From Pseudonocardiales bacterium (lineage in GTDB: Bacteria; Actinomycetota; Actinomycetes; Mycobacteriales; Pseudonocardiaceae), in assembly GCA_019241525.1 (NCBI GenBank), contig JAFAWY010000091.1, positions 1 to 64,000 on the forward strand: a DNA stretch of 64,000 nucleotides. The letters are read 5' to 3'. The translations under genes were made by a program, and so were the position numbers. Positions 37,247 to 51,630 of the stretch are shown here, piece after piece. Every line of letters begins with the position of its first letter. Position 1 is the first letter of the stretch. Under the pieces are notes generated by a model. That model saw only the letters and a list, made by a program, of their open reading frames with translations. It did not search any database and was not told the origin of the DNA.

Positions 37247-37684
37247 TCAACCGTGGAGCAGCCGCTGCAGTGCCTCGCGCGCCGCGCTATCTCGGGCAGC
37301 AACCTGCGCAAGATCGTGCGCCAACGCCTGCAACCAGTCGTCCATCCCGATGCTACGGCGGCTGATCGTCACCCCGTGCACCACTTGCCGCACTTCCGCG
37401 TCGATCTGGCCATTCTTCGCTTCGCGAAGCTCGAGGTCCCGTTTGTTGCCGTGCACCACAAGGCGAACAGCGCGCCCCGGGCGGCCGGCTAGCCGGTCGC
37501 TGACGCTGCGCTGGTACTCAGTCTCCACCATGCCCGGCGGTAACGCCTGAGCAAGCGCCCCGCTGAGCACCCGGGCGTACGAGGCGACCTCCGTCTGGTC
37601 TGACCGCAGCATCGCGGCCAGCAACTGCACGTCGCCTATCGGACCCAGGCCGCTGTCCCCGCTGGGCACGGGCTGATCCGTCAT
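37247..37684 (-). CDS. Conserved-looking orphan protein (145 aa) in the YbjQ-TPR operon
   Basis: The ATG at 37684 overlaps the stop of the YbjQ gene by ATGA. The N-terminal ~50 residues are helical (DVQLLAAMLRSDQTEVASYA). A beta-rich middle follows (GRPGRAVRLVVHGNKRDLEL, QVVHGVTISRRSIGM), then a C-terminal helix (WLQALAHDLAQVAARDS). No enzyme motif is visible and I do not recognise a family. Translational coupling to the YbjQ gene means it probably works with it. Confidence 0.75.
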   Translation of the reverse strand: MTDQPVPSGDSGLGPIGDVQLLAAMLRSDQTEVASYARVLSGALAQALPPGMVETEYQRSVSDRLAGRPGRAVRLVVHGNKRDLELREAKNGQIDAEVRQVVHGVTISRRSIGMDDWLQALAHDLAQVAARDSAAREALQRLLHG

Positions 37685-38514
37685 CGGTCGGTCAGCGGCA
37701 GCACAAGCTGCGGTTTGGCGATCACATGGTCGGCGCGTAGCGGGCGCACCGCGGTGCCGATCGCAAAGAACTCGGTGGTGTGGCCGCCCCAACGATGTCC
37801 CATCGACAGCAGCTGCACTCCGACGATGCCCTCGGCGGCCAATCGCTCCGCTTCGGCCTGCATCCGGCTCATGGCCAGTTCCCGCGCGTCGTACAGTGCC
37901 TCGGTGAACTGCGGCAGTTCCACGTTCTGACCAATGTTTCCCATCGCCTGCCAGAACCGCTGATGCGCGACGTGGTACACGCAGGTGCCCATCACCATGC
38001 CCAGTGGCGCGTACCCGGCCTGGATCAGCGTCCAGAAGTCCTGACCCGACAGATCGGAGGTAAACGGCTGGCCCTGATTGTTGCGCCAGGGCTGCCCGTC
38101 CGGTGTCTGTGGCTCATCCGCACTGACGGCGGTGCCGACCGCAATGAACTCGGCGAGGTCTGAACCGAACTCCTTGAATTCGATGTCCAACCGGACCCCG
38201 ACGATGCCGTCGGCGCCCAACTGATCCGCCTCGGTCTCCATCCGGGTCATGGCCAGTTCCCGGGCGTGGTACATCGCCTGGGAAAGCGTGGTCAATTCCT
38301 GGTTGCTGCTCCACCGGCCGAACTGGAACCCAACGTGGTAGACGCTGGACCCCAGCACGAGGCCGAGGGGACGGAATCCGGCCTCCCGTACCAGCAGAAA
38401 CTCGTTCACCGACAGGTCGGAAGTGAACAAGCTGGTCGCCTGACCGGGTCGCATCTCGGCGAGGCGGCGCATCGCATCCTCGGGGATGCCGAGGGCCGTG
38501 GGATCGGCGGTCAT
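37681..38514 (-). CDS. Tandem YbjQ-type (heavy-metal-binding-like) protein A
   Basis: The 277-aa protein has two copies of a YbjQ/UPF0145-like domain. Domain 1 (residues ~25-130) and domain 2 (~150-255) share FTSDLS(V/G), PLG(L/M)V(L/M)G, a YHARELAM/YDARELAM helix and the signature GADGIVGVRLDIEF / AAEGIVGVQLLSMG. Each ends in EF(I/F)A(V/I)GTAV. Free-standing YbjQ proteins form pentamers and have no proven biochemical role despite the 'heavy metal' name. The tandem form and the coupled operon are noteworthy. Confidence 0.85.
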   Translation of the reverse strand: MTADPTALGIPEDAMRRLAEMRPGQATSLFTSDLSVNEFLLVREAGFRPLGLVLGSSVYHVGFQFGRWSSNQELTTLSQAMYHARELAMTRMETEADQLGADGIVGVRLDIEFKEFGSDLAEFIAVGTAVSADEPQTPDGQPWRNNQGQPFTSDLSGQDFWTLIQAGYAPLGMVMGTCVYHVAHQRFWQAMGNIGQNVELPQFTEALYDARELAMSRMQAEAERLAAEGIVGVQLLSMGHRWGGHTTEFFAIGTAVRPLRADHVIAKPQLVLPLTDR

Positions 38515-38540
38515 TCGCTACTCCTCGTCTTCGGCGACGG

Positions 38541-39446
38541 CTATCGCACCGGCAGGATGGTCAACGATCGGGTCGGTGCGGTCGAGTCCCGGTGAAAGCG
38601 CACCAGCGCGGTGCCGAAGACACTTGCTTCGGCGACATGATCACGATGTCCCTCCGACGGCTCGATCTCACTGACGTGGAGACCCATCGAGGACACGATC
38701 GCTCCTTCCGCACCAGCTGCGCGGACCCGCTGTTGGAAGCTGTGACGGGCATCCGCACGCACGTGCCAGACAAGCTCGGTGTAGCCAGATACTTCCGTGT
38801 TACCCGCACCCCAAGACGCCTGCCGCTGGGTCGCCCAGTCGTCATGGCGCACCGCCACTGAGATCCCGTAGACGACAGCGCAGGGCACCCATCCGGCCTG
38901 CAGCAGCTTGGCCACGTCCTGGCCGGCCAGATCGGTAGTGAATACCCGGCCCGGGCGGTACTGAGACCGGGCACGGACCGCGGTGCCTGACGCGACGAAT
39001 TCCCGATTGTTGTTACCGAGGTGGGACACCGACAGCTGCACTCCCACGACACCATCGGCCTCCATTGCGGCGGCTTCTTCCATCATGCGCCGCAACGCTG
39101 TGCCGTAACCGTGGAACAGTGCATCAACGTACGGGCCGAAGCCGACGAAGCCGCGGGACCCGGAGGACGTGACGGTCGGACCGCCGAGGCCGAAACCGCT
39201 AAAGCCGCCAAGGCCTATGCCGCCAGGACCCGTGATGCCGCTGACGTAGCCGCAGCCACCGAAGCCGCTCCACCCGATGTGCTCGACGATGCAGCCCATC
39301 ACCTCGCCAACCGGATCGAGGCCGACCGTCTGCACACCGGCAGCTCCTGGCACGGTCAGCAACGAGGTACGTAGGCCGCTGCGCGCGAAACGCGCCATCC
39401 GTTCGGCAGCCACCGGCGGTAGCCCGCGGCCGTCCCAGTCAGCCAT
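38541..39446 (-). CDS. Tandem YbjQ-type protein B with Gly-rich insert
   Basis: This 301-aa protein is a divergent paralogue of the gene 27 nt downstream. Domain 1 has an inserted Gly/Phe-rich loop (roughly residues 60-100, including GGIGLGGFSGFGLGG) before MEADGVVGVQLSVSH and REFVASGTAV. Domain 2 starts VFTTDLAGQDVAKLLQAGWV and ends AGAEGAIVSSMGLHVSE with SVFGTALV. It begins the operon; the divergent isomerase gene starts 159 nt away. The function is unknown. Confidence 0.82.
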   Translation of the reverse strand: MADWDGRGLPPVAAERMARFARSGLRTSLLTVPGAAGVQTVGLDPVGEVMGCIVEHIGWSGFGGCGYVSGITGPGGIGLGGFSGFGLGGPTVTSSGSRGFVGFGPYVDALFHGYGTALRRMMEEAAAMEADGVVGVQLSVSHLGNNNREFVASGTAVRARSQYRPGRVFTTDLAGQDVAKLLQAGWVPCAVVYGISVAVRHDDWATQRQASWGAGNTEVSGYTELVWHVRADARHSFQQRVRAAGAEGAIVSSMGLHVSEIEPSEGHRDHVAEASVFGTALVRFHRDSTAPTRSLTILPVR

Positions 39447-39605
39447 CCATGCTCACCTCACATCCGCACACCACCACCATAAATGTCCGGTTTCTTTGCT
39501 CGCGCCGCGATGACGATGCCCGCGTTGCACTTCCGCTGGGTGATACCTTCCTCACTGAGCGAAACATCCCGGTGCAAGCGACCGTCCTACCAGGCAGGAG
39601 CAGAC

Positions 39606-41063
39606 ATGGCGCGCGTCGGACTGTTGACCTTCTCTGACGGACGTGATTTCGTCCACACCGACATCAAGGCATTCGAGCTCGACGTCGAAGGCCGCATCGC
39701 GCAGGCGCTGGAGCAAGCCGGGCATGAAGTGATCCGCGCTGCAGAGCCGGTCTGGACCAACGCGCTGGCCACCAGCGAGGCGCGCCGAGTAGCCGATGCG
39801 CGGCCCGACCTGACCATCTTCAACTATCCCGTGTGGGCGTTCCCGCACTTCTCCATGCTGGCCGCCGAAGCCTCCCCAGGCCCGCTGTTGCTGTTTTCCA
39901 ACATCGACCCGCAATTCCCGGGAATGGTCGGCATGCTGGCCGCCGGTGGCGGGCTGGACCAGGTCGGCCGTGCGCACACCCGCGTTTGGGGCGACGTGTC
40001 CGAGTCCGCGGTGCTCGATCGGGTCCTGGCAACAGTTCGGGCCGCCACTGCGGTGTCTCGGCTGTCGGGCAGTACGTTCGGCCGGATTGGCGGGCGTCCG
40101 ATGGGCATGTATACCGCGGTAGCCGACACCGACCAGTGGATGAGTACGTTCGGGGTGGACGTCGAGGAAATCGACCAGTGGGAGATCGTCCGCCGCAGTG
40201 CCGCTGTCGAGCAGTCCCGGGTGACGGCCGGCCGGGAATGGCTAGAACGTCACGCAGGCAAGGTGCATTACGACGGCAAGCAGCTGACTCCGGAACTGCT
40301 GGAACGCCAAATACGCTCCTACTTCGCCGTGCGGGAACTGATCGACGAATGGAACCTGGACTTCAGCGGGATCAAAGGCCAGCCGGAGCTGACCACCCAC
40401 TTCGCCACCATGGATGTCACCGAGGCCTTCCTCAATGATCCCTATGATTGGGAAGGCGCCAAGCCCACGCATGTGTGCGCCACCGAGTCCGACATGGACG
40501 GGGCGCTCACCATGCAGCTGCTCAAGGGGCTGTCTGGCACTCCGGTGCTCTTCGCCGATGTGCGGCACTACCACGCCGATCGCCACATCTGGGACCTGTG
40601 CAACTCGGGGCAGCACGCCACCTGGTTCGCCGCCCGCAGTGACGACCCGGCAGAGAATTTGCGCTTGGTGCACTTTTACCCGGAGATCTTCTACTTCCCC
40701 GCTGGTGGTGCCTCGGTGTCCTTCTTCGCCGCCCCGGGGCAAGCGACGTTCGCCCGGCTGACCAGGATCGGTGGCAGGTACCGGATGCACGTGGTGCGCG
40801 GGGAGTTCGAACGCTACGACGATGCGACCAACGAAGCACTGGCCCGGCAATCCACGTTTGAGTGGCCGCACGCGTTCGCCCGGCTAGAAGCTGAGGCCGA
40901 TGAGTTCCTGTCGACCTTCGGGGCCAACCACATCCACGCGATACCCGGCGACCACGTCGCTGAGCTGCGCGCCGTATGCCGAATGCTCGACATCGAATGG
41001 GCTGGGATGGGCACAAGTCGCGTGGACGGGACCTGCGCGGCCGTAGCGGACACAGCTCAGTGA
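39606..41063 (+). CDS. L-fucose/L-arabinose isomerase-family protein
   Basis: ATG 39606 (CAGGAG upstream) gives 485 aa. The conserved C-terminal half includes CATESDMDGALTMQLLKGL, with the Glu and Asp expected to bind Mn2+, and HFYPEIFYFPAGGASVSFFA near the active site. The N-terminal domain (GLLTFSDGRDFVHTD, FNYPVWAFPH) fits the FucI/AraA-like fold. Family members interconvert aldoses and ketoses such as L-fucose/L-fuculose and D-arabinose/D-ribulose. The GTGA overlap with an FGGY kinase and nearby GH172 suggest a pentose, and I favour D-arabinose. The precise substrate is inference. Confidence 0.85.
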   Translation: MARVGLLTFSDGRDFVHTDIKAFELDVEGRIAQALEQAGHEVIRAAEPVWTNALATSEARRVADARPDLTIFNYPVWAFPHFSMLAAEASPGPLLLFSNIDPQFPGMVGMLAAGGGLDQVGRAHTRVWGDVSESAVLDRVLATVRAATAVSRLSGSTFGRIGGRPMGMYTAVADTDQWMSTFGVDVEEIDQWEIVRRSAAVEQSRVTAGREWLERHAGKVHYDGKQLTPELLERQIRSYFAVRELIDEWNLDFSGIKGQPELTTHFATMDVTEAFLNDPYDWEGAKPTHVCATESDMDGALTMQLLKGLSGTPVLFADVRHYHADRHIWDLCNSGQHATWFAARSDDPAENLRLVHFYPEIFYFPAGGASVSFFAAPGQATFARLTRIGGRYRMHVVRGEFERYDDATNEALARQSTFEWPHAFARLEAEADEFLSTFGANHIHAIPGDHVAELRAVCRMLDIEWAGMGTSRVDGTCAAVADTAQ

Positions 41064-42592
41064 GCTCGCTGCTGCTCGGTGTCGACATCGGCACCGCCAG
41101 CTCCAAGGGAGTACTGGTCCGCGACGACGGTACCGTCGTTGCGACCGCCAGCCGCGCACACGAGGTGTCGATGCCGCACCCCGGCTGGGTGGAGCACGAC
41201 GCCCAAGCGGTGTGGTGGGCAGATTTCACGGCGATCAGCCAGGAACTGACCGCGGCGGCTCCTGAAGCCATTGCCGCGGTGGGAGTCAGCGGAATCGGCC
41301 CGTGCCTGCTACCGGTGGACGGCGAGGATCGACCACTCCGGCCGGCAATTCTCTACGGCGTAGACACCCGCGCTCAGATCCAAATCGAGGAACTGAACCG
41401 GGAGCTAGGTGAGCAGACCATCCTGGAGCGCTGCGGTTCGGTGCTCACCTCGCAAGCCATCGGGCCCAAGGTGGCTTGGCTACGCGCAAACGAACCCGCC
41501 ATCTGGGCATCCACCCGCCGATTTCTGATGGCCAGCAGCTTCCTGGTGCGCCGGCTGACCGGCTGCTACATCCTCGATCACCACTCCGCCAGCCAATGCA
41601 CGCCGATGTACGACCCGGTGCAGCACCGATGGATCCAGGAGTGGACCGATCTCATCGCCCCAGGACTCGAGCTACCGGAGCTGCGCTGGCCGTCGGACGT
41701 TGTCGGAGAGGTGCATACGACTGCCGCCGACCAGACCGGTATTCCGGTGGGTACTCCGGTGGTGGCCGGCACCATCGATGCCTGGGCCGAAGCCACCAGT
41801 GTCGGCGTCACCGCGCCCGGCGACGTCATGCTGATGTACGGCACCACCATGTTCCTGGTCGAGGTGCTCGATCGCGCGCGCCGGAGCCCGGCTCTGTGGG
41901 GAACCGTGGGAACGTTTCCAGGCACCTACAACTTCGCTGCGGGGATGGCCACCTCAGGCGCGATCACCGACTGGATCCGCAAGCTGACGGGGGAATCCGG
42001 GTTCGATTGTCTCGTCGCAGAAGCCCACCAGTCGCCGGCAGGTGCCCACGGCTTGCTGATGTTGCCCTACTTCGCTGGTGAACGGACTCCACTGTTTGAC
42101 CCGGAAGCCCGTGGCGTGCTGATCGGCCTGAGCTTGCGGCACAACCGCGGCGATATGTACCGGGCCGCTTTGGAGGCCACCGCCTACGGAGTCCGGCACA
42201 ACCTGGAAGCAATGCGTGACGCGGGTGGCCAGTACCGCCGGCTGGTCGCGGTGGGCGGCGGCACCAAGGGCGGGCTGTGGACGCAGATTGTCTCCGACGT
42301 GCTCAATGCCCCCCAGGAGCTGCCCCGGCAGACGATCGGCGCGTGCCTTGGCGACGCGCTGCTCGCGGCCATCGGGATCGGGCAGTCACCGGACATGCTT
42401 CACTGGAATCCCATCGAAACCACGGTCCAGCCGCGCACCACGATGGCGGCCGCCTACGACCGTTACTACGACCTTTACCGGCAGCTGTACCCGCGCACTA
42501 AGGAAATCGCCCATGCGCTCGCCCGGGAACAGCATCTCGAGGATGTCGCCACCCCCGAGCCATCGATCCCCTCGCATACCGGAGGTAGCTGA
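41060..42592 (+). CDS. FGGY-family carbohydrate kinase (ribulo/xylulokinase-like)
   Basis: GTG 41060 gives 510 aa, overlapping the isomerase stop by 4 nt. The actin-like ATPase starts LLLGVDIGTASSKGVLVRDD. It contains the GVSGIGPCLLPVD and GVDTRAQ blocks, GTIDAWAEATSVG, LPYFAGERTPLFDPEARG and the C-terminal GGGTKGGLWTQIVSDVL. Family enzymes phosphorylate keto-sugars from matching isomerases. D-ribulose, L-ribulose, L-fuculose and xylulose are all possible. Confidence 0.9.
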   Translation: MSSLLLGVDIGTASSKGVLVRDDGTVVATASRAHEVSMPHPGWVEHDAQAVWWADFTAISQELTAAAPEAIAAVGVSGIGPCLLPVDGEDRPLRPAILYGVDTRAQIQIEELNRELGEQTILERCGSVLTSQAIGPKVAWLRANEPAIWASTRRFLMASSFLVRRLTGCYILDHHSASQCTPMYDPVQHRWIQEWTDLIAPGLELPELRWPSDVVGEVHTTAADQTGIPVGTPVVAGTIDAWAEATSVGVTAPGDVMLMYGTTMFLVEVLDRARRSPALWGTVGTFPGTYNFAAGMATSGAITDWIRKLTGESGFDCLVAEAHQSPAGAHGLLMLPYFAGERTPLFDPEARGVLIGLSLRHNRGDMYRAALEATAYGVRHNLEAMRDAGGQYRRLVAVGGGTKGGLWTQIVSDVLNAPQELPRQTIGACLGDALLAAIGIGQSPDMLHWNPIETTVQPRTTMAAAYDRYYDLYRQLYPRTKEIAHALAREQHLEDVATPEPSIPSHTGGS

Positions 42593-44016
42593 TGGGCGGC
42601 CCTGCGTTCTTGAACCGGGTGAGTACTCGACGCGTGTACACCCTGGGTGCACTGGCAGCGGTGCTGTTCGGTTACGACAACGGCATCATCGGCGCAGCGT
42701 TGCTGTTCATCTCCCGTGACCTGCCACTGACCCCGTGGCAGGAGGGCGCCGTGGTCAGCGCCACGGTGTTCGGGGCGATGGTGGGCGCGCTGGGCAGCGG
42801 CCCTGCGGCCGACCGTCTGGGTCGGCAGCGGATCCTGCTGGCCGCCGGGATCGTCTTCACCATCGGCGCCCTAGGTGCCGGTCTGGCCGCCTCCGTCGCC
42901 ATGCTGGTGGCGTTTCGCTTCATCCTCGGACTGGGCATCGGTATCGCCTCGGTGCTGGTGCCCCTTTACCTGGCAGAGATGGCCCCGGCCTCAGACCGCG
43001 GCGTGGTCACCTCGCTGAACCAATACATGATCATCGTGGGGACGGCGCTGTCCGCGGCTCTCGGCTATGCGCTGGCCTTCGCCGGTTCCTGGCGCTGGAT
43101 GCTGCTCGTCGGAGTGTTTCCTGCCATCGTGCTGGTACTCGGCATGCTGGCCATGCCGGACACCCCCAGGTCACTGGTACGACGTGGACAGGATGACAGT
43201 GCGCGGGCGGTGCTGATCGGCTTACGCGGCGACACCGCGGCGGCCGATAAGGAATTCGCCGAGATCAGCGCGCTGGAACAGCAGCAGCACGACACGCGTA
43301 CGCTAGCCCGCCTCTCATCCGGCTGGGTACGCCGGCTGCTGCTACTAGGCGCGTTGCTCGCCATCTTCCAGCAGGTCACCGGGATCAATGCGATCGTGTA
43401 CTACGCACCGACCATTCTGACCGGCTTCGGCCTCTCGAAGACGACCGCATTGTTGTTCGGTTTCCTCAACGGGCTGGTGAACATCGGGACCATCGCGCTG
43501 GTCGTGCGCGCCAAAATCGTCGACCGGCGCGGCCGCAAACCAATCTTGCTGGCTGGCTTGGTGGGAATGTCGGTCAGCCTATTCGCTGTCGGTATCGCGG
43601 CACTGACACTCCCGGTCAACTCCAGCGCACTTTTCGTCATTGCGGCGGCGGCGTTTGTGGTGTTCACCAACACCTTCTCGGCCACGTGGGGGCCGGTGCT
43701 ATGGGTGATGCTGGCGGAAATCTTCCCGTTAGCCATCCGGGGTGCGGCGATGGCCATTGCCACCTTGTTTAACTGGTTGGCTGCCTTCGTCGTGTCACTG
43801 ACATTCCCCAGCTTCGCGGCCGTGGCCGGCACGGGCACGGCCTTCATCGTCTATGCCGCTGTGGGCGTGTTGCTCTTCCCGGTCGTGTGGTGGATGGTGC
43901 CGGAGACCAAGGAGCGCAGCCTGGAATCGCTGGAGGCAGCGTTTCGCGACAGCACCGGTATCCGGTTTGCGGTCACGCCTAAGACTTCCGCTGCGGGCAC
44001 CGGAGGGCAAGCATGA
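42592..44016 (+). CDS. MFS sugar/proton symporter (sugar porter family)
   Basis: The 474-aa, 12-helix membrane protein has the sugar-porter marks: LFGYDNGIIGAALLFI in helix 1, ADRLGRQRILLAAG, RFILGLGIGIASVLVPLYLA, PDTPRSLVRRG, FQQVTGINAIVYYAPTI and the terminal PETKERSLE. It should import a monosaccharide with protons, by context the pentose used by the isomerase and kinase. The ATG shares one nt with the kinase stop. Confidence 0.92.
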   Translation: MGGPAFLNRVSTRRVYTLGALAAVLFGYDNGIIGAALLFISRDLPLTPWQEGAVVSATVFGAMVGALGSGPAADRLGRQRILLAAGIVFTIGALGAGLAASVAMLVAFRFILGLGIGIASVLVPLYLAEMAPASDRGVVTSLNQYMIIVGTALSAALGYALAFAGSWRWMLLVGVFPAIVLVLGMLAMPDTPRSLVRRGQDDSARAVLIGLRGDTAAADKEFAEISALEQQQHDTRTLARLSSGWVRRLLLLGALLAIFQQVTGINAIVYYAPTILTGFGLSKTTALLFGFLNGLVNIGTIALVVRAKIVDRRGRKPILLAGLVGMSVSLFAVGIAALTLPVNSSALFVIAAAAFVVFTNTFSATWGPVLWVMLAEIFPLAIRGAAMAIATLFNWLAAFVVSLTFPSFAAVAGTGTAFIVYAAVGVLLFPVVWWMVPETKERSLESLEAAFRDSTGIRFAVTPKTSAAGTGGQA

Positions 44017-45098
44017 CCGTCAATTACGGACCGTACGGTTCGAGCCTGCGTGATCTGCCGCGGCTGCGCAGCACCCGGAGGAGACGTGCGTCCAGCTGGG
44101 ATCGCACCGGCGGCAACGACGATCGCCTCACTCTGCGCCCGGGACAGCGCGCGACCCTGGCAGACATCGAGGGCGCCGGCACGATCAATCACATCTGGGT
44201 GACCGTGGCCAACGAACGGATGATCCGGGACCCGTGGATGCGAGAACCCGATTACCTGCGCCGGCTCGTACTGCGTGCTTACTGGGACGGCGAAGAACAT
44301 CCCAGCATCGCCGTGCCGCTCGGCGACTTTTTCGGGGTAGGCCACGGCCGTACCACCAACTTCGTCTCCGCGCCGCTACAGATGAGCCCTGAGGACGGAA
44401 AGGGCTTCAACTGCTTTTTCCACATGCCCTTCGGCGCGGGAGCCCGGTGGGAAATCGCCAGCGAGCTGACCGACGAGACGGTCTTTTTCTACTATTACAT
44501 CGACTACGAAGAGATTGACGAGCTCGAAGACGGCATCGGGCGTTTCCACGCCCAATGGCGCCACAGCAATCCGTGCTCCGGGGTCGAGCAGGGATCCGAA
44601 ACCAACGCCGAGTTCTTGCTGGCCGGCGAGAACCTCGACGGGAAAGCGAACTACACCATCCTGGAAGCAACCGGCCGCGGGCATTATGTCGGCTGCGTGC
44701 TCAACATTCACAACCTTCGCGACACCACTGAGTGGAACTGGTATGGCGAGGGCGACGACATGATTTTTATCGACGGCGAGGCATGGCCGCCGAGCTTGCA
44801 CGGCACCGGCACCGAGGACTATTTCAACACCGCCTGGTGCCCGACCCAGACCTACCATGCGCCGTATCACGGAATCACCTTGCCTGGCGGTGACAACTGG
44901 AGCGGGCAGATCAGCCTGTACCGGTTCCACATCGAAGATCCGGTGCCGTTCGAGCGATCAATCAGGGTGAGCATCGAGCATGGGCACGCGAACAAACGCA
45001 GCGACGACTATTCATCGGTGGCGTACTGGTACCAGGCCGAACCGCACCACCCATTCGACCTCGCTCCCGTCGAGCAGCGCGCCCCACGAGCCCGGTGA
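44013..45098 (+). CDS. DUF2961/GH172 glycoside hydrolase
   Basis: This encodes 361 aa, starting within the symporter gene end (ATGA). GH172 is a jelly-roll family known for inulin difructose-anhydride hydrolase and D-/L-arabinofuranosidase-type enzymes. Matching blocks are GTINHIWVTV, LRAYWDGEEHPSIAVPLGDF, FGVGHGRTTNFVSAPL, FFYYYIDYEEIDEL and LHGTGTEDYFNTAW with the conserved Glu. There is no signal peptide, so this copy is intracellular and probably acts on imported oligosaccharides. No extracellular endo-enzyme is in the window. Confidence 0.88.
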   Translation: MTVNYGPYGSSLRDLPRLRSTRRRRASSWDRTGGNDDRLTLRPGQRATLADIEGAGTINHIWVTVANERMIRDPWMREPDYLRRLVLRAYWDGEEHPSIAVPLGDFFGVGHGRTTNFVSAPLQMSPEDGKGFNCFFHMPFGAGARWEIASELTDETVFFYYYIDYEEIDELEDGIGRFHAQWRHSNPCSGVEQGSETNAEFLLAGENLDGKANYTILEATGRGHYVGCVLNIHNLRDTTEWNWYGEGDDMIFIDGEAWPPSLHGTGTEDYFNTAWCPTQTYHAPYHGITLPGGDNWSGQISLYRFHIEDPVPFERSIRVSIEHGHANKRSDDYSSVAYWYQAEPHHPFDLAPVEQRAPRAR

Positions 45099-45521: not shown

Positions 45522-46418
45522 TCAGCCCACGTACCGGCGGGCCGGCGACCGCCGTTGCGGTTCCTCCAACAATCGGAGCCCATGCTCGACGGCTGCCGGT
45601 ACCACCCGACGCTCCCGAACTACCCAGGTCAGCCCGGCTAAGGCCTCAGCGAAGGCCGCCACGCTGGCCCAGTCCCGAGGTACTGAGCGCAGCATGGTGA
45701 CGGTCCGTCGCAGCGCGCTTGGTAACGGGCGGCGCAACCACGCGGTCCATAATGTGTTGCGGATCCCCAACTGCCGCCGTCGTCGCGGATCCCGGCAGCT
45801 CGATGGGGCATGTTCGATGACCACATCCGGTGCCCAGCACATCCACCAGCCGGCGGCGGCGAGGTCCAGAGCGAGCAGTTCCTCTTCACCGCCCAACCAC
45901 AGCCGCGGCGAGAACCCACCGACCTGGCGGAACGCTGCAACACGAAACATGCTCGCCCCCGCGAGCACACCGAGCAGAGCTGGACCAGGCAGCCAGGCCG
46001 GCCCGGGTACGGGAGAGTTGCGCAGCTCAGGAGTGATGGGATCCTCGGTCATTGCCGGAGCCACCAGGATCCGTCCGGTCACCGAAGCCAGTTGTTGGTG
46101 GGCGTCGAGCACGTCAGCAGCCCGCCTTAGCGCACCGGGCCGCCACCGGGTGTCGTCATCGCAGAACGCCACGTAACGGGTGTCAATGTCTCGAACCGCC
46201 AGGTTGCGGCCTAGTGCGCCGAGATTGCCCGCGCTGCGCAGCAGTTTTACCTGGCCGAAGCGTTCTGCCACAGCGTCGGCGGTACCGTCGGTGGAGCCGT
46301 TGTCAACGACCACCACAGGAGCGCGGTCCGGCAGCGCTGTCATGTGCTGGAGGGTCTGTAACAGCTCCGCCTTGCGGTTCTGCGTGATGATCACCACCGT
46401 GGTCCGGCCGCCGGTCAT
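45522..46418 (-). CDS. Family 2 glycosyltransferase
   Basis: The 298-aa GT-A enzyme has the nucleotide-sugar site TVVIITQNRKAELLQTL and [15 protein letters not shown], the DxD-type AFCDDDTRWRPG and acceptor-site GGEEELLALDLAAAGW. It lacks membrane helices and should act at the cytoplasmic side. It is a paralogue of the next gene upstream, with start and stop codons overlapping by one nt. Sugar and acceptor are unknown. Confidence 0.9.
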   Translation of the reverse strand: MTGGRTTVVIITQNRKAELLQTLQHMTALPDRAPVVVVDNGSTDGTADAVAERFGQVKLLRSAGNLGALGRNLAVRDIDTRYVAFCDDDTRWRPGALRRAADVLDAHQQLASVTGRILVAPAMTEDPITPELRNSPVPGPAWLPGPALLGVLAGASMFRVAAFRQVGGFSPRLWLGGEEELLALDLAAAGWWMCWAPDVVIEHAPSSCRDPRRRRQLGIRNTLWTAWLRRPLPSALRRTVTMLRSVPRDWASVAAFAEALAGLTWVVRERRVVPAAVEHGLRLLEEPQRRSPARRYVG

Positions 46419-47284
46419 CAGCCGGCGTCTTCCAGCATGCGGACCTGCTCCTCCACCGCGGGAGGCAATGGAGCGCGCCGCCGCAGCGCCGCGGGCAGCC
46501 GAACGATTGCCTCACCTAACGCGGTGCGAGCGACCCCGTCCCGCATCGAATCTCGGGCCAGAGACGTCGCAGCAGCGACGGCGACCGGCCGCGGCCTGCG
46601 CAAGACCGCGGTGAGCAAAGCGTTGCGCAGCTCGGCCACCCGGCGACGTTGCGGATCTGAACGGTTCGAGGAGGGATGGTGGTAAGCGACGATGTCATGC
46701 AGATATGACCGCTCCCACCCTGCCGTAGCCAGGTCGTAACACAACAAGCGCTCCTCCCCCACAAAGAACAGCAGGCTGCTGAAGCCACCTACCTCACAGA
46801 ACGCCGCCTTGCGCATCACGGCCGAGCACGCCAGGAAACCCAGCACGGATGGACCGGGGGCATCCGGGGAACGGGGCAGCGGACTGCATTCCAGCAACAG
46901 GGTGATCGGGTCGGCGCGGTGCATGGGGCCGACCAGCGTCCGAGCGGCGACCAGGCCAAGACGGGGGTGACTGTCCAGTACCACTGCGGCGCGCTCCAAC
47001 GCACCTGGAGCCCACCAGGAATCGTCGTCGCTGAAAGCGACGTAAGGAGTACGCGCCGCCACCACGCCGAGATTGCGGGCAGCGGCACCGTGGTTTCTGG
47101 GCAACGCCAGCACGACCGTGGCGGCGAACTGGTCGCCCACCGCCTGGGCCGTACCGTCGGTTGAGCCGTTGTCCACGACGATTACCGGTGGTGCCGGAAC
47201 AAGGTCGTGTAGCCGCTGTAGCGTGCGGATCAGCTCGTCGCGTCTGTTGCGGGTGGCGATGACCACCGTCACCCCGCTGCTCAT
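46418..47284 (-). CDS. Family 2 glycosyltransferase
   Basis: This encodes 288 aa with the same architecture as its downstream neighbour: [46 protein letters not shown] and [16 protein letters not shown]. It is the first gene of the two-gene minus-strand unit and is divergent from the UDP-sugar decarboxylase gene. The two may add successive sugars to the same glycan. Confidence 0.9.
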
Positions 47285-47413
47285 CGCGGCTCCCCCAAGC
47301 GACGCACCCTGACGGGCCTTCGTACCCGCCGAGCGCCTGTGGCAAACATGCGACCGCGTTTCACTTCGCCCCAGCGGGGGTATCAGGCTGCGGGTAGAGC
47401 GACAGGGGGCGTG

Positions 47414-48430
47414 GTGAGCACCAGATTCAGCAGGGCTGTGGTGACAGGTGGAGCTGGGTTTCTCGGGTCACACCTGTGCGAACAACTGCTTCGCCGCGGT
47501 ACTGGCGTCATGTGCCTGGACAATTTTCTCACCGGCACACCGGCCAATATTTCTCATCTCATCGGCGAGCCTAGATTTCGTCTGATCAAGTGCGATGTGA
47601 CCAACTTCGTGCACGTTCCCGGTCCAGTCGATTTGGTGTTACATCTGGCCTCGGCAGCGTCCCCTGCCGACTATCTACGGTTGCCCATCGAGACGCTCAA
47701 GGTAGGCAGCTTGGGCACGCTGCACGCACTGGGTTTGGCCACGGAGAAGGGCGCGCGCTTTGTTCTCGCGTCGACCAGCGAGGTTTATGGCGATCCGCAG
47801 CAGCACCCGCAAGGCGAGAGTTACTGGGGCAACGTCAACCCGGTCGGCCCGCGAAGTGTCTATGACGAAGCCAAGCGCTATGCCGAAGCGCTGACCACCG
47901 CGTACCGGCTCTCGCGCGGCACGGATACCGCAATAGTCCGGATCTTCAACACTTACGGTCCCCGGATGCGGCCGGACGACGGGAGAGCCATCCCGACCTT
48001 CATCCGCCAAGCGCTGGCTGGCGAGCCGCTGTCGGTCACCGGCGATGGCAGCCAAACCCGGTCGGTGTGCTACGTGGATGACACCATCCGCGGCATCCTG
48101 GCGTTAGCCGAGTCGGACGAACCAGGGCCGGTGAACATCGGCGGCCCGCAGGAACTACCAGTTGCCGAGCTGGCCGCGACCGTCCTGGAGGTCAGCGGAG
48201 TACCGGGGTCGGTCCGGCATATCGCGCGCCCCGTCGACGATCCCCGCGTGCGACGCCCAGACATCACGTTGGCCCGCGAACTACTCAACTGGGAGCCGCA
48301 AGTCCAACTCCGCGACGGTCTCGCGCGAACTATCGCCTGGTTCCGATCCCAACTCTGCGGTGCCGACATAGGGACATACCGGCCAAACAAGCGTGCTGCG
48401 TACCCCGATATGGCTCCCTCTGGGACGTAG
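47414..48430 (+). CDS. UDP-glucuronate decarboxylase-like NAD-dependent epimerase/dehydratase
   Basis: GTG 47414 gives 338 aa. The extended-SDR signature [17 protein letters not shown] binds [23 protein letters not shown] is typical of UDP-xylose synthase (UXS), and [12 protein letters not shown] holds the YxxxK pair. The other product class would be dTDP-glucose 4,6-dehydratase, but the ASPxxY and CLDNF(L)TG motifs favour UXS. It probably supplies UDP-xylose or a related 4-keto sugar for the glycan made by this locus. It opens the rightward series of genes. Confidence 0.85.
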
Positions 48431-48502
48431 TTTTGAACGCAATTTCGCTGGGTAGTCAGTCGCTATACGTTCGGGTGGCGGCTCATGCCTACGGAGGGCC
48501 AG

Positions 48503-50155
48503 ATGCGCGTCCTGGGTATCAACGCGATCTTCCACGATCCAGCAGCGGCGCTGGTCGTCGATGGGGAGATCGTGGCTGCCGCCGAGGAGGAGCGTTTCAC
48601 CCGCCGCAAGCACGGCAAGCGCCCGGTACCGTTTGCCGCCTGGGAGCTGCCCGAGCGGGCCGCGCGCTGGTGCCTCCAGTCCGCCGGGATCGGTCCCGAC
48701 GACCTCGATGCCGTTGCCTATTCGTATGACCCGGCATTGGTACGGCCGGACGTGGGCGGGTTGGATGAGCGGTGGGAGGATCTACGCACCACCTACGCCC
48801 GGCGGGCTCCGCATTTTCTGGCCACTGCGCTGCCCGAGCTTGACCCGGCTGTCGTGCACTTCGTACCGCACCACCTTGCCCACGCCGCCTCCGCGGGCCT
48901 GGCCGCACCCTTTCGTGACTCCGCGGTCCTTGTTGCCGATGGTCGGGGGGAGGCCACCTCTTACCTGGCCGGTCGCTACCGCGACGGCGAGCTCGACGTG
49001 CTGGCCAGCCAGGAACTGCCCCATTCGTTGGGCTTGATGTACGAGGAGGTCACCGATCACCTGGGTTTCCTGCGCTCCTCCGACGAGTACAAGGTGATGG
49101 CGCTGGCGTCGTACGGGCGCCAGCCCGGCACCGAACCCGCGTTGCTGCCCACCCTGCGCGACCTCATTTACCCCACTGGCGACGGCGGGTTCGTCGTGCG
49201 GCCCATCGACTGGTCCGAACTCGCCAAGCGGCGCCCGCCCGATGAAGAGCTGCAACCCGAGCACGTCGAACTCGCCGCCGCGGTGCAGGTGCGCCTGGAG
49301 GAGGTGCTGCTGGAGCTGGCATCGTGGCTGCACCGGCGCACCGGCGAGCGGCGCCTGGCGATGGCCGGCGGGGTGGCACTCAACTGCGTCGCGAACACCC
49401 GCCTGGCCGCGCAAGGCCCCTTCGACGAAGTCTGGGTGCAGCCCGCTGCGGGAGACGCGGGCACCGCACTCGGCGGGGCTTTACACCTCGCGCAGTCCTT
49501 CGGTGAGCCGATCACACCGATGCCAGGAGCCGACCTTGGCCGGGGCTTCAGCGATGACGAACTGACCCGCTGGCTGGACGATGCGCACATCCGCTACGAA
49601 CGCCCACCAGACGCAGCGGCAGCAGCCGCCGAGGCGTTGGCCGCCGACGCGATCGTGGCGTGGTTCCAGGGACGCAGCGAGTTCGGCCCTCGCGCGTTGG
49701 GCCATCGCTCGCTGCTCGCGCACCCAGGCCACGCCCGGAACCTCGACCGGCTCAACGCAGTCAAAGGACGTGAGCAGTTCCGTCCGGTGGCGCCCATGGT
49801 GCTGGCCGAGCGGGCTGCCGAGCTGTTCAACCGCGGCCCGCTGCCCAGCCCATACATGCTGTTCGTCCACGACGTCGCACCCCGATGGCGCGACCGGATC
49901 CCGGCGGTGGTGCACGTCGACGGCACCGCACGGATCCAGACCATCGACCGGGACAGCGAGCCGCTGCTGGCGCGGCTGCTGGACCGGTTCGCCGAGCTGA
50001 CCGGCCTGCCGACAGTGGTCAACACCAGCCTGAACACCGCAGGGCGGCCCATGGTCGACGACCCGCGCGACGCCCTGGAGTGTTTCGGGTCAGCTCCGGT
50101 CGACGTGCTGGTGCTCGGGCCGTTTGTCGTGCGGCGTTGCGAGCTCACCCGATGA
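48503..50155 (+). CDS. NodU/CmcH-type carbamoyltransferase
   Basis: ATG 48503 with GGAGGG 5 nt upstream gives 550 aa. The N-terminal domain (VLGINAIFHDPAAALV, AAAEEERFTRRKHG, VPHHLAHAASA) binds metal and carbamoyl-adenylate. The C-terminal YrdC-like region has WFQGRSEFGPRALGHRSLLA and VNTSLNTAGRPMVDDP. It transfers carbamoyl from carbamoyl phosphate to a hydroxyl, as in cephamycin, Nod-factor and heptose decorations. In this locus a glycan hydroxyl is the likely acceptor. It overlaps the next gene by ATGA. Confidence 0.92.
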   Translation: MRVLGINAIFHDPAAALVVDGEIVAAAEEERFTRRKHGKRPVPFAAWELPERAARWCLQSAGIGPDDLDAVAYSYDPALVRPDVGGLDERWEDLRTTYARRAPHFLATALPELDPAVVHFVPHHLAHAASAGLAAPFRDSAVLVADGRGEATSYLAGRYRDGELDVLASQELPHSLGLMYEEVTDHLGFLRSSDEYKVMALASYGRQPGTEPALLPTLRDLIYPTGDGGFVVRPIDWSELAKRRPPDEELQPEHVELAAAVQVRLEEVLLELASWLHRRTGERRLAMAGGVALNCVANTRLAAQGPFDEVWVQPAAGDAGTALGGALHLAQSFGEPITPMPGADLGRGFSDDELTRWLDDAHIRYERPPDAAAAAAEALAADAIVAWFQGRSEFGPRALGHRSLLAHPGHARNLDRLNAVKGREQFRPVAPMVLAERAAELFNRGPLPSPYMLFVHDVAPRWRDRIPAVVHVDGTARIQTIDRDSEPLLARLLDRFAELTGLPTVVNTSLNTAGRPMVDDPRDALECFGSAPVDVLVLGPFVVRRCELTR

Positions 50156-51630
50156 GCTACACCGTGGTGATCCCGACAATCGGCCGGGCGAATTTAGACC
50201 AGCTCCTGACACGGCTGGCAGAGCTGATGCAGCCCGTGCTCGTCGTCGACGATCGGCCGGCCACCGGCGCGGAGCTGCGGCTGCCGGACACCGGCGCCTC
50301 GGTGCAGGTGCTGCGCTCGGCAGGACGCGGTCCGGCAGCGGCGCGCAACGTTGGGTGGCGCGCCGCGGATACCGAGTGGGTGGCGTTCCTCGATGACGAC
50401 GTGCTGCCTGGGCCGGACTGGGCCGCGCAGTTGGTCCACGACCTGCACGGGCTTGGCGCGGATGTGGGCGCCACCCAGGGTCGCATCGAGGTGCCGCTTC
50501 CGGGGCACCGGCGACCCACCGACGCCGAGCGCGGCACCGCTGGTTTGGCCACGGCCCGGTGGATCACTGCGGACATGGCTTACCGCCGCGCCGCACTGAA
50601 GCGGGTCGGTGGCTTCGATGAACGCTTCGGTCGTGCCTACCGGGAAGACGCCGATCTGGCGTTGCGGGTGATCGCCGCTGGCTACCGGGTCGTGCAGGGG
50701 CAGCGGCACACCGTGCACCCGGTGCGGCAGTCCGGACCGCTGGCCAGCGTGCGCGCGCAACGCGGCAACGCCGACGACGTCTTGATGCGGCGCCGGCACG
50801 GATCTGGCTGGCGGGAACGGATCGGCGACGGACCCGGCCGGTTGCGACGGCACCTGCTGACCACCGCAGCCGCCGCGGTGGCGGTCGGTGCCGCGACGCG
50901 CCGCCACCCCCGGGTGGCGGGTGCGGCGGGTCTGGTGTGGGCTGTGCTGACCACCGAGTTCGCCGCGCACAGGATCCTGCCCGGGCCGCGCAGCGCCGGC
51001 GAGATCGGACGGATGCTGGTTACCAGTGTCGCCATCCCCCCGGCGGCGTGCTGGCACCGGTTGGCTGGCGAACTGCGCTGGCGAGCTGTGCCCCCAGCCA
51101 TCGGTGTGCCCGCCGCGGTGCTGTTCGATCGTGACGGCACGCTAGTTCACGACGTCCCCTACAACACCGATCCTGCGGTGGTGCAGCCGGTTCCCGGCGC
51201 CCGCACGGCGCTGGATCGGCTCCGTGACCTTGGTATCCCCGTCGGTGTCGTCACTAACCAGTCCGGGGTGGCGCGCGGGCTGATCAGCCCTGCCCAGCTG
51301 CAGCGGGTCAACACCAGGGTGTCGGAGTTACTGGGCCCGTTCCAAGCGTGGAGTGTCTGCGTGCACGGCGAAAACGACGGCTGCGGCTGTCGCAAGCCGG
51401 CCCCAGGTCTGGTCAAAGACGCCGCCGGGCAGCTGGGCGTTCCGGCAGACCGGTGCGTGGTCATCGGAGATACCGGCGCTGATGTCACCGCCGCCGCCGC
51501 GGCCGGTGCCCGGGGAATCCTGGTGCCCACCGACCGCACGCTGCACCCGGAAATCCAGGCCGCCGCCGAAGTAGCTCCAGACATCAGCACAGCCGTCGAA
51601 CTCGCCCTGTCCGGGCGGGTCGGGCCATGA
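50152..51630 (+). CDS. Fusion of GT2 glycosyltransferase and GmhB-like HAD phosphatase
   Basis: The 492-aa protein has two enzymes in one chain. Residues 1-~250 are a GT-A glycosyltransferase (YTVVIPTIGRANLDQLL, WVAFLDDDVLPGPDWAAQLV, YREDADLALRV). A linker with hydrophobic patches follows. From ~320 comes a HAD phosphatase (VLFDRDGTLVHD, VVTNQSGVARG, CVHGENDGCGCRKPAPG with the Cys/His zinc cluster, VVIGDTGADVTAAAAAG). The latter matches D-glycero-D-manno-heptose-1,7-bisphosphate 7-phosphatase (GmhB) and histidinol-phosphatase. With GmhA and HldE in the same operon, GmhB is favoured. Confidence 0.88.
   Translation: MSYTVVIPTIGRANLDQLLTRLAELMQPVLVVDDRPATGAELRLPDTGASVQVLRSAGRGPAAARNVGWRAADTEWVAFLDDDVLPGPDWAAQLVHDLHGLGADVGATQGRIEVPLPGHRRPTDAERGTAGLATARWITADMAYRRAALKRVGGFDERFGRAYREDADLALRVIAAGYRVVQGQRHTVHPVRQSGPLASVRAQRGNADDVLMRRRHGSGWRERIGDGPGRLRRHLLTTAAAAVAVGAATRRHPRVAGAAGLVWAVLTTEFAAHRILPGPRSAGEIGRMLVTSVAIPPAACWHRLAGELRWRAVPPAIGVPAAVLFDRDGTLVHDVPYNTDPAVVQPVPGARTALDRLRDLGIPVGVVTNQSGVARGLISPAQLQRVNTRVSELLGPFQAWSVCVHGENDGCGCRKPAPGLVKDAAGQLGVPADRCVVIGDTGADVTAAAAAGARGILVPTDRTLHPEIQAAAEVAPDISTAVELALSGRVGP

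What the first reader, a model, noticed from the sequence alone, without database searches (positions are those of the whole stretch)
39606..45098. Candidate D-arabinose/D-arabinan scavenging operon built on GH172
An isomerase of the fucose/arabinose family, an FGGY kinase, a sugar/H+ symporter and a GH172 hydrolase overlap by 1-4 nt each. GH172 includes enzymes that release D- or L-type arabinofuranose, and FucI-like isomerases can convert D-arabinose to D-ribulose, which FGGY kinases phosphorylate. Mycolata cell walls contain D-arabinan, so the operon may recycle or feed on it. The signal-less GH172 suggests that oligosaccharides, or glycosides, enter the cell first. I have not seen this exact four-gene order described.
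Basis: partly seen in the sequence, partly recalled or inferred. Interest (0 to 1): 0.78.

Follow-up and report, generated by a model that had tools for sequence, protein, structure and literature searches.

The report
Compact D-arabinose scavenging operon, GH172-based
Four overlapping genes in an actinobacterium most likely cut the unusual sugar D-arabinose from small cell-wall fragments and feed it into central metabolism, a slim version of a pathway described only recently.

Summary
Four genes at 39606-45098 overlap by 4, 1 and 4 nt: FucI-type isomerase, FGGY kinase, sugar-porter MFS, GH172. The order is complete in 8 distinct genomes including this one: seven Pseudonocardiales and Speluncibacter jeojiensis, where a GH183 (endo-D-arabinanase family) gene lies divergently next door. 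Isomerase orthologues keep company with GH172s of two distant clades (27 of 36 loci). The predicted isomerase fold matches D-arabinose isomerase 3a9r best, just ahead of L-fucose isomerases. The window GH172's ~360-aa clade has GH183, GH116 or FucI-like genes nearby in 27 of 80 loci. That side also holds DgGH172c, a shown alpha-D-arabinofuranosidase, and fructose would need no isomerase. Two corrections: the host is a Pseudonocardiaceae relative with arabinan-synthesis genes (mycolates not tested), and D-arabinan clusters with isomerase and kinase are already published. New is the compact MFS-based variant in a likely arabinan maker. The importer's substrate and the purpose (recycling or feeding) remain open.

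The parts
39606..41063 (+). FucI-type aldose-ketose isomerase, 485 aa; probable D-arabinose to D-ribulose
   Evidence: Pfam Fucose_iso domains; AlphaFold model pLDDT 87, best PDB match by E-value D-arabinose isomerase 3a9r, TMq 0.87; E294, D318, H442 (FucI E337, D361, H528; FucI numbers recalled, matched by motif) invariant in 18 orthologues
41060..42592 (+). FGGY pentulose kinase, XylB-like, 510 aa; probable D-ribulokinase
   Evidence: FGGY_N/C; TIGR01312 XylB 321 bits, below the 380-bit cut-off; a relative in the same fetched stretch in 34 of 36 isomerase loci
42592..44016 (+). Sugar-porter MFS, 474 aa, GlcP/XylE-like; probable H+ symporter for D-arabinose or a small D-arabinoside
   Evidence: Sugar_tr, TIGR00879 above cut-off, 12 hydrophobic segments, GlcP 322 and XylE 217 bits with FGYD, FQQxxGIN and WGPVxW motifs shared
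44013..45098 (+). GH172, probable exo-alpha-D-arabinofuranosidase, 361 aa, no signal peptide; catalytic E246 and E268, also D269 and W243
   Evidence: DUF2961 299 bits; residue mapping to DgGH172c E233/E254/D255 and alphaFFase1 E270/E291/D292; all four invariant in 19 rows; fold nearest 4kq7, 8ah3, 7v1v, then 8ic8 (model pLDDT 81)
39447..39605 (+). 159-nt gap between the divergent YbjQ-type gene and the isomerase; the only upstream room for an operon promoter
   Evidence: coordinates only; no promoter scan was run

Best explanation
A small catabolic operon for D-arabinose locked in alpha-D-arabinofuranosides. Proposed steps: (1) fragments arise outside the cell, from the cell's own or other cells' arabinan, helped by GH183 enzymes encoded elsewhere in the genome (inferred). 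(2) The MFS porter brings in D-arabinose or a small D-arabinofuranoside with protons (inferred; least certain). (3) Cytosolic GH172 removes terminal alpha-D-Araf with retention, E268 as nucleophile and E246 as acid/base (residues shown conserved, activity inferred). (4) The isomerase makes D-ribulose (fold and metal ligands shown, substrate inferred). (5) The kinase makes D-ribulose-5-phosphate for the pentose phosphate pathway (inferred).
For: Order complete in 8 distinct genomes with changing upstream flanks. Isomerase orthologues (61-72% identity outside the genus) sit by GH172s of two clades: 27 of 36 fetched loci (5 window-type, 22 of a ~860-aa type at 25-29% identity), kinase in 34 of 36. 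Among 80 named loci of window-type GH172, within up to 10 kb: GH183 16, GH116 13, FucI-like 16, any of the three 27. Speluncibacter: GH183 with signal-like N-terminus divergent from the same four genes. Thermotogae L168: isomerase (55%) ends one base before GH172 (55%). Isomerase fold best to 3a9r D-arabinose isomerase. Catalytic residues match DgGH172c. Own genome: four Emb proteins, DprE1-like oxidase, ABC-2 transporter genes on one contig; four GH183, two with signal-like N-termini by eye.
Against: 53 of 80 named GH172 loci show none of the three markers; several Saccharopolyspora copies lie beside a UvrC-type gene and other conserved neighbours, and rhizobial copies with LacI and ABC genes only. 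GH172 is nearer alphaFFase1 than ExoMA1, and alphaFFase1's place in the tree is unresolved. Fold does not separate D-arabinose isomerase from L-fucose isomerase (TMq 0.87 against 0.85-0.87). Sugar porters usually carry monosaccharides, so a cytosolic hydrolase behind one is odd. No GH116 in the genome, no GH183 on the window's contig, and no relative of the one arabinan-cluster binding protein tried (whose note says an empty answer without a positive control shows nothing). Kinase is below the XylB equivalog cut-off, so its substrate is open.
Confidence: 0.8

Rival explanations
1. alpha-D-fructofuranoside or difructose-anhydride use: GH172 acts like alphaFFase1, and the isomerase and kinase serve another sugar.
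For: 260 bits to alphaFFase1 against 111 to ExoMA1; fold TMq 0.82 to 7v1v and 0.72 to 8ic8.
Against: Fructose is already a ketose and needs no isomerase, yet isomerase and GH172 stay together across clades and phyla. GH183 and GH116 recur beside this clade. DgGH172c, scored as high, is an alpha-D-arabinofuranosidase on arabinogalactan (PMC10115798). The window protein ends near alphaFFase1 residue 383 (extrapolated), before that enzyme's C-terminal helix (397-448, PMC8605356).
Confidence: 0.1
2. L-fucose (or another deoxyhexose/hexose) catabolism: isomerase acts as a true FucI and the kinase as FucK, with GH172 on an unknown fucofuranoside or galactofuranoside.
For: FucI and D-arabinose isomerase share fold and sugar stereochemistry; FucI folds score practically as high as 3a9r. 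One class II aldolase exists elsewhere in the genome.
Against: No aldolase gene in the operon, no GH29 fucosidase in the genome, kinase 321 bits to XylB but 118 to fuculokinase, isomerase far below the FucI equivalog cut-offs, the five GH172s tested in PMC10115798 did not act on D-galactan.
Confidence: 0.06
3. Same chemistry, different purpose: dedicated recycling of the cell's own cell-wall arabinan rather than scavenging from others.
For: The cell encodes arabinan synthesis, four GH183 and a GH172 found in 10 of 11 genomes of its genus.
Against: Window-type GH172 (E 1e-60 or better) in 18 of 397 order genomes while Emb proteins occur in 62 of 200 (a different sample), so it cannot be general among arabinan makers; the clade also occurs in rhizobia, Clostridia and Chloroflexi, not known to make arabinan (general knowledge).
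Confidence: 0.3

Closest known systems
D-arabinan utilisation cluster of Microbacterium arabinogalactanolyticum (PMC10509167, passages read)
   Same: cytosolic GH172 without signal sequence, putative isomerase and kinase leading to D-ribulose-5-phosphate; GH183 secreted
   Different: there ABC importer, GH183, GH116 and an ExoMA1-clade GH172 sit in one cluster; here four genes, MFS instead of ABC, GH172 of another clade, GH183 on other contigs, no GH116 found in the genome
Dysgonomonas gadei PUL42 (PMC10115798, passages read)
   Same: predicted fucose isomerase the most abundant carbohydrate-active protein on D-arabinan; DgGH172c is among the nearest characterised GH172s (265 bits)
   Different: large Bacteroidota PUL with three GH172 and two GH183
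alphaFFase1 of Bifidobacterium dentium (PMC8605356, passages read)
   Same: same half of GH172 (place unresolved), same catalytic residues
   Different: 460-residue chain with C-terminal helix, difructose dianhydride I substrate; the word isomerase has 0 occurrences in the paper's main text
Pseudonocardiaceae LacI-ABC-isomerase-kinase loci with ~860-aa GH172 (this work, 22 of the loci L040-L069)
   Same: orthologous isomerase (61-72% identity) and FGGY kinase
   Different: ABC importer, LacI regulator and a distant large GH172

Membership tests
GH172 (DUF2961) | DUF2961 double jelly-roll domain | tested here: met
   299 bits, cut-off 27; fold TMq 0.81-0.82 to 4kq7, 8ah3, 7v1v
GH172 (DUF2961) | two catalytic glutamates and following Asp | tested here: met
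   E246, E268, D269, invariant in 19 rows
GH172 exo-alpha-D-arabinofuranosidases, ExoMA1 clade | membership of the ExoMA1 clade in a tree | tested here: not met
   ExoMA1 groups with Ruania and Occultella paralogues (100/99), window elsewhere
GH172 exo-alpha-D-arabinofuranosidases | release of D-arabinose from alpha-D-arabinofuranosides | not testable with these tools
   needs enzyme assay; only genomic company
FucI / D-arabinose isomerase family | FucI fold and metal ligands Glu, Asp, His | tested here: met
   TMq 0.87 to 3a9r, 0.86 to 1fui; E294, D318, H442 invariant (FucI numbering recalled)
FucI equivalog (L-fucose isomerase) | NCBIfam cut-off TIGR01089 850 or NF008220 775 bits | tested here: not met
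   68.5 and 84 bits
D-arabinose isomerase | D-arabinose to D-ribulose activity | not testable with these tools
   no assay
xylulokinase XylB (TIGR01312) | equivalog cut-off 380 bits | tested here: not met
   321 bits: FGGY kinase of neighbouring specificity
sugar porter family MFS (TIGR00879) | subfamily cut-off 237.8 bits | tested here: met
   337.6 bits
D-arabinan utilisation locus (Microbacterium type) | GH183 in the same cluster | tested here: not met
   four GH183, all on contigs other than the window's; present beside the same operon in Speluncibacter
D-arabinan utilisation locus (Microbacterium type) | GH116 exo-beta-D-arabinofuranosidase | tested here: not met
   no PF04685 match in the genome
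D-arabinan utilisation locus (Microbacterium type) | isomerase plus kinase plus GH172 together | tested here: met

The most novel reading that the evidence does not exclude
A likely arabinan-making actinobacterial lineage, not shown to have mycolates, takes cell-wall arabinan fragments back as small alpha-D-arabinofuranosides through an MFS symporter (to my knowledge the first such importer) and returns the D-arabinose to D-ribulose-5-phosphate: a closed arabinan turnover loop. The ~360-aa GH172 clade found from Actinomycetota to Thermotogae, Chloroflexi and archaeal MAGs would be a second large D-arabinan-specific GH172 subfamily, with alphaFFase1 a side branch.
Probability: 0.25. Interest if true: 0.65.

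Novelty: new variant of a known kind. Interest (0 to 1): 0.47.

Why it matters
What happens to D-arabinan after it is cut in bacteria that make it is little known; [quoted passage not shown] A four-gene operon that joins a cytosolic GH172 to D-arabinose metabolism makes that question testable in one E. coli host, offers tools for analysing arabinogalactan, and gives a genomic argument for the substrate of a large GH172 clade that lies on the side of the family represented by a difructose enzyme.

Tried and rejected
Rejected: membership in the ExoMA1 clade (tree); L-fucose pathway as main reading (no GH29, no aldolase in the operon). A PUL-type binding protein elsewhere in the genome was not found (weak test). 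My note called the unnamed genus g60, whose GH172s are 55% identical, Nocardia-like; that was unsupported: a g60 genome had no Emb protein (G163). NocGH172 itself was not compared. The kinase was queried in a wrong frame (KIN identities printed there are void); the frame was corrected. One search aligned minus-strand loci in the wrong orientation; one search replaced it. In one search Speluncibacter's GH172 is printed before the porter because stop-to-stop frames were sorted; one search gives the true order. Literature searches (listings, open-access PMC, no supplements; two returned nothing) showed no description of an MFS-based four-gene form, but I did not read those papers whole, and figures and supplements of PMC10509167 could not be read. 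One passage of PMC3245297 on FGGY kinases gave no specificity rule.

Rows dropped: L150 and L170 were left out after one search stopped on a stop codon in L150, and the end of L182 was shortened by one codon. One search used 52 GH172 rows chosen from the held loci, not all. Of the 57 genomes with the isomerase I fetched 36 neighbourhoods. One search scanned 10 chosen ORFs of contig C33; besides the arabinan genes it showed a helicase and two dehydrogenases. Not run: promoter scan, a background rate for GH183/GH116 near GH172, a mycolate test.
Full report
OBSERVATION. Start and stop codons give overlaps of 4, 1 and 4 nt: isomerase 39606-41063, kinase 41060-42592 (GTG start; frame checked), sugar porter 42592-44016, GH172 44013-45098. 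Pfam supports every assignment above its cut-off. NCBIfam adds that the isomerase is far below the L-fucose isomerase equivalogs, the kinase is nearest XylB but below its cut-off, and the porter passes the sugar-porter cut-off; GH172 has no NCBIfam match.

CONSERVATION. In the genus, DUF2961 is found in 10 of 11 genomes. L070, L109 and L111 appear to be contigs of one further genome in which the operon is broken over contig ends (contig numbers and coordinates agree); L071 is a short contig. Upstream neighbours change between members, so the four genes behave as a unit. L114 is Speluncibacter jeojiensis, with 66% (isomerase), 59% (kinase), 68% (porter) and 82% (GH172) identity, and a divergent GH183 gene with a signal-like N-terminus 325 nt away. 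In other genomes (L091/S. spinosa, L092 = L117 Herbihabitans, L115, L121) only the porter-GH172 pair was found in the fetched stretch, which hints that the porter carries something GH172 cuts or releases.

THE ISOMERASE. It matched 57 of 150 genomes of the family at E 1e-40 or better. I fetched 36 of these neighbourhoods (the window's own not among them). With HMMs built from the loci themselves, 27 of 36 hold a GH172 (5 of the window type, 22 of an ~860-aa type only 25-29% identical), 34 of 36 the kinase and 28 of 36 a LacI regulator; two of the nine without GH172 lie on cut-off contigs (L070, L071). In L053 the surroundings are an ABC ATPase, permease, sugar-binding protein, large GH172 and LacI regulator. 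One isomerase, two distant GH172 clades: the shared factor should be the sugar that GH172 releases (inference). The AlphaFold model (pLDDT 87) matches Bacillus pallidus D-arabinose isomerase best by E-value (TMq 0.87), then L-fucose isomerases (0.85-0.87), then L-arabinose isomerases (0.71-0.78). FucI's metal ligands (recalled as E337, D361, H528) align by motif with E294, D318 and H442, all invariant in 18 orthologues. This does not distinguish D-arabinose from L-fucose, which share configuration.

THE GH172. It is the only DUF2961 protein in its genome. Scores: 4kq7 289, 8ah3 265, alphaFFase1 260, ExoMA1 111 bits. 8ah3's molecule name is DG02479, and residues 233, 254 and 255 of that chain are the E, E and D reported as catalytic for DgGH172c (HMPREF9455_02479), an alpha-D-arabinofuranosidase active on arabinogalactan (PMC10115798, passages). 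The equivalents here are E246, E268 and D269, invariant with W243 in 19 rows. The tree (52 rows) puts the window with Pseudonocardiales, Speluncibacter and Saccharopolyspora proteins, separates ExoMA1 (100/99), and leaves alphaFFase1 as a long branch of unresolved place (85/23).

COMPANY OF THE CLADE. Of 80 named loci, within up to 10 kb, 16 hold GH183, 13 GH116, 16 a FucI-like isomerase (11 of the window's type, 5 of a more distant type), 27 at least one of these (HMM score over 100). They include Nonomuraea, Ruania, Occultella, Actinotalea, Tessaracoccus, Chloroflexi and Clostridia. In a Thermotogae MAG (L168) isomerase and GH172 are adjacent. GH183 is the endo-D-arabinanase family, and a GH116 exo-beta-D-arabinofuranosidase is known (PMC10509167, passages). 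No formal background rate was computed; the window's own genome holds four GH183 in 4.7 Mb, so a random 20 kb would rarely hold one. The loci are related, so the counts are not independent. Against: 53 of 80 show none of the three.

HOST. One contig holds four Emb-type proteins, and a FAD oxidase of the DprE1 kind (name inferred from Pfam domains), a family 2 glycosyltransferase and an ABC-2 transporter pair, so the cell very likely makes D-arabinan. It encodes four GH183, two with signal-like N-termini by eye, and no GH116. The family contains S. spinosa and Herbihabitans, hence Pseudonocardiaceae. Mycolates were not tested.

HOW IT WORKS. Shown: gene order, conservation, folds, catalytic residues, genomic company. 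Inferred: import of D-arabinose or a small D-arabinoside by the porter; release of D-arabinose by cytosolic GH172; isomerisation to D-ribulose; phosphorylation, most likely to D-ribulose-5-phosphate since no aldolase is in the operon. The weak joint is import: the porter family usually carries monosaccharides. Either it takes small glycosides, or free D-arabinose enters and GH172 handles fragments arriving another way.

NOVELTY. D-arabinan clusters with a putative isomerase and kinase (Microbacterium) or a fucose isomerase (Dysgonomonas) are published. The compact four-gene, MFS-based form in a likely arabinan maker did not show in the listings, but figures and supplements could not be read. 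I rate it a new variant of a known kind.

Noticed in passing
L114:11088-12911; also L091, L124, L125, L128, L130, L140: A ~600-aa family, signal-like N-termini by eye in several members, with no Pfam match (tested on the L114 member) near these GH172 genes; its profile matches GH183/DUF4185 (hhalign probability 98.3%). A candidate new D-arabinan-active family.
   Followed up: partly
L040-L069 (22 loci): Pseudonocardiaceae carry a second locus type around the same isomerase: LacI regulator, kinase, a ~860-aa GH172 only 25-29% identical to the window's, and in those looked at an ABC importer.
   Followed up: partly
L147, L152: Window-type GH172 (63% identity) in two Candidatus Jordarchaeia archaeon MAGs.
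   Followed up: no
most of L169-L186, also L156 and L167 (rhizobia and Inquilinus): Conserved LacI - binding protein - permeases - GH172 arrangement without isomerase or GH183 found nearby; the substrate there may differ.
   Followed up: no
window 37681-39446 (-): Two adjacent YbjQ-type genes just upstream and divergent; among L036-L071 found only in L036.
   Followed up: no
window 45522-47284 (-) and 47339-51630 (+): Two adjacent family 2 glycosyltransferases, then ORFs that read like a sugar epimerase, a carbamoyltransferase and a glycosyltransferase-HAD fusion (recalled by eye, not scanned): a possible glycan cluster unrelated to the operon.
   Followed up: no
L109 and L111: One MAG (GZL_FP_2_bin.41) holds the end of the operon on two contigs with 91% and 89% GH172 identity; strain mixture or duplication.
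   Followed up: no
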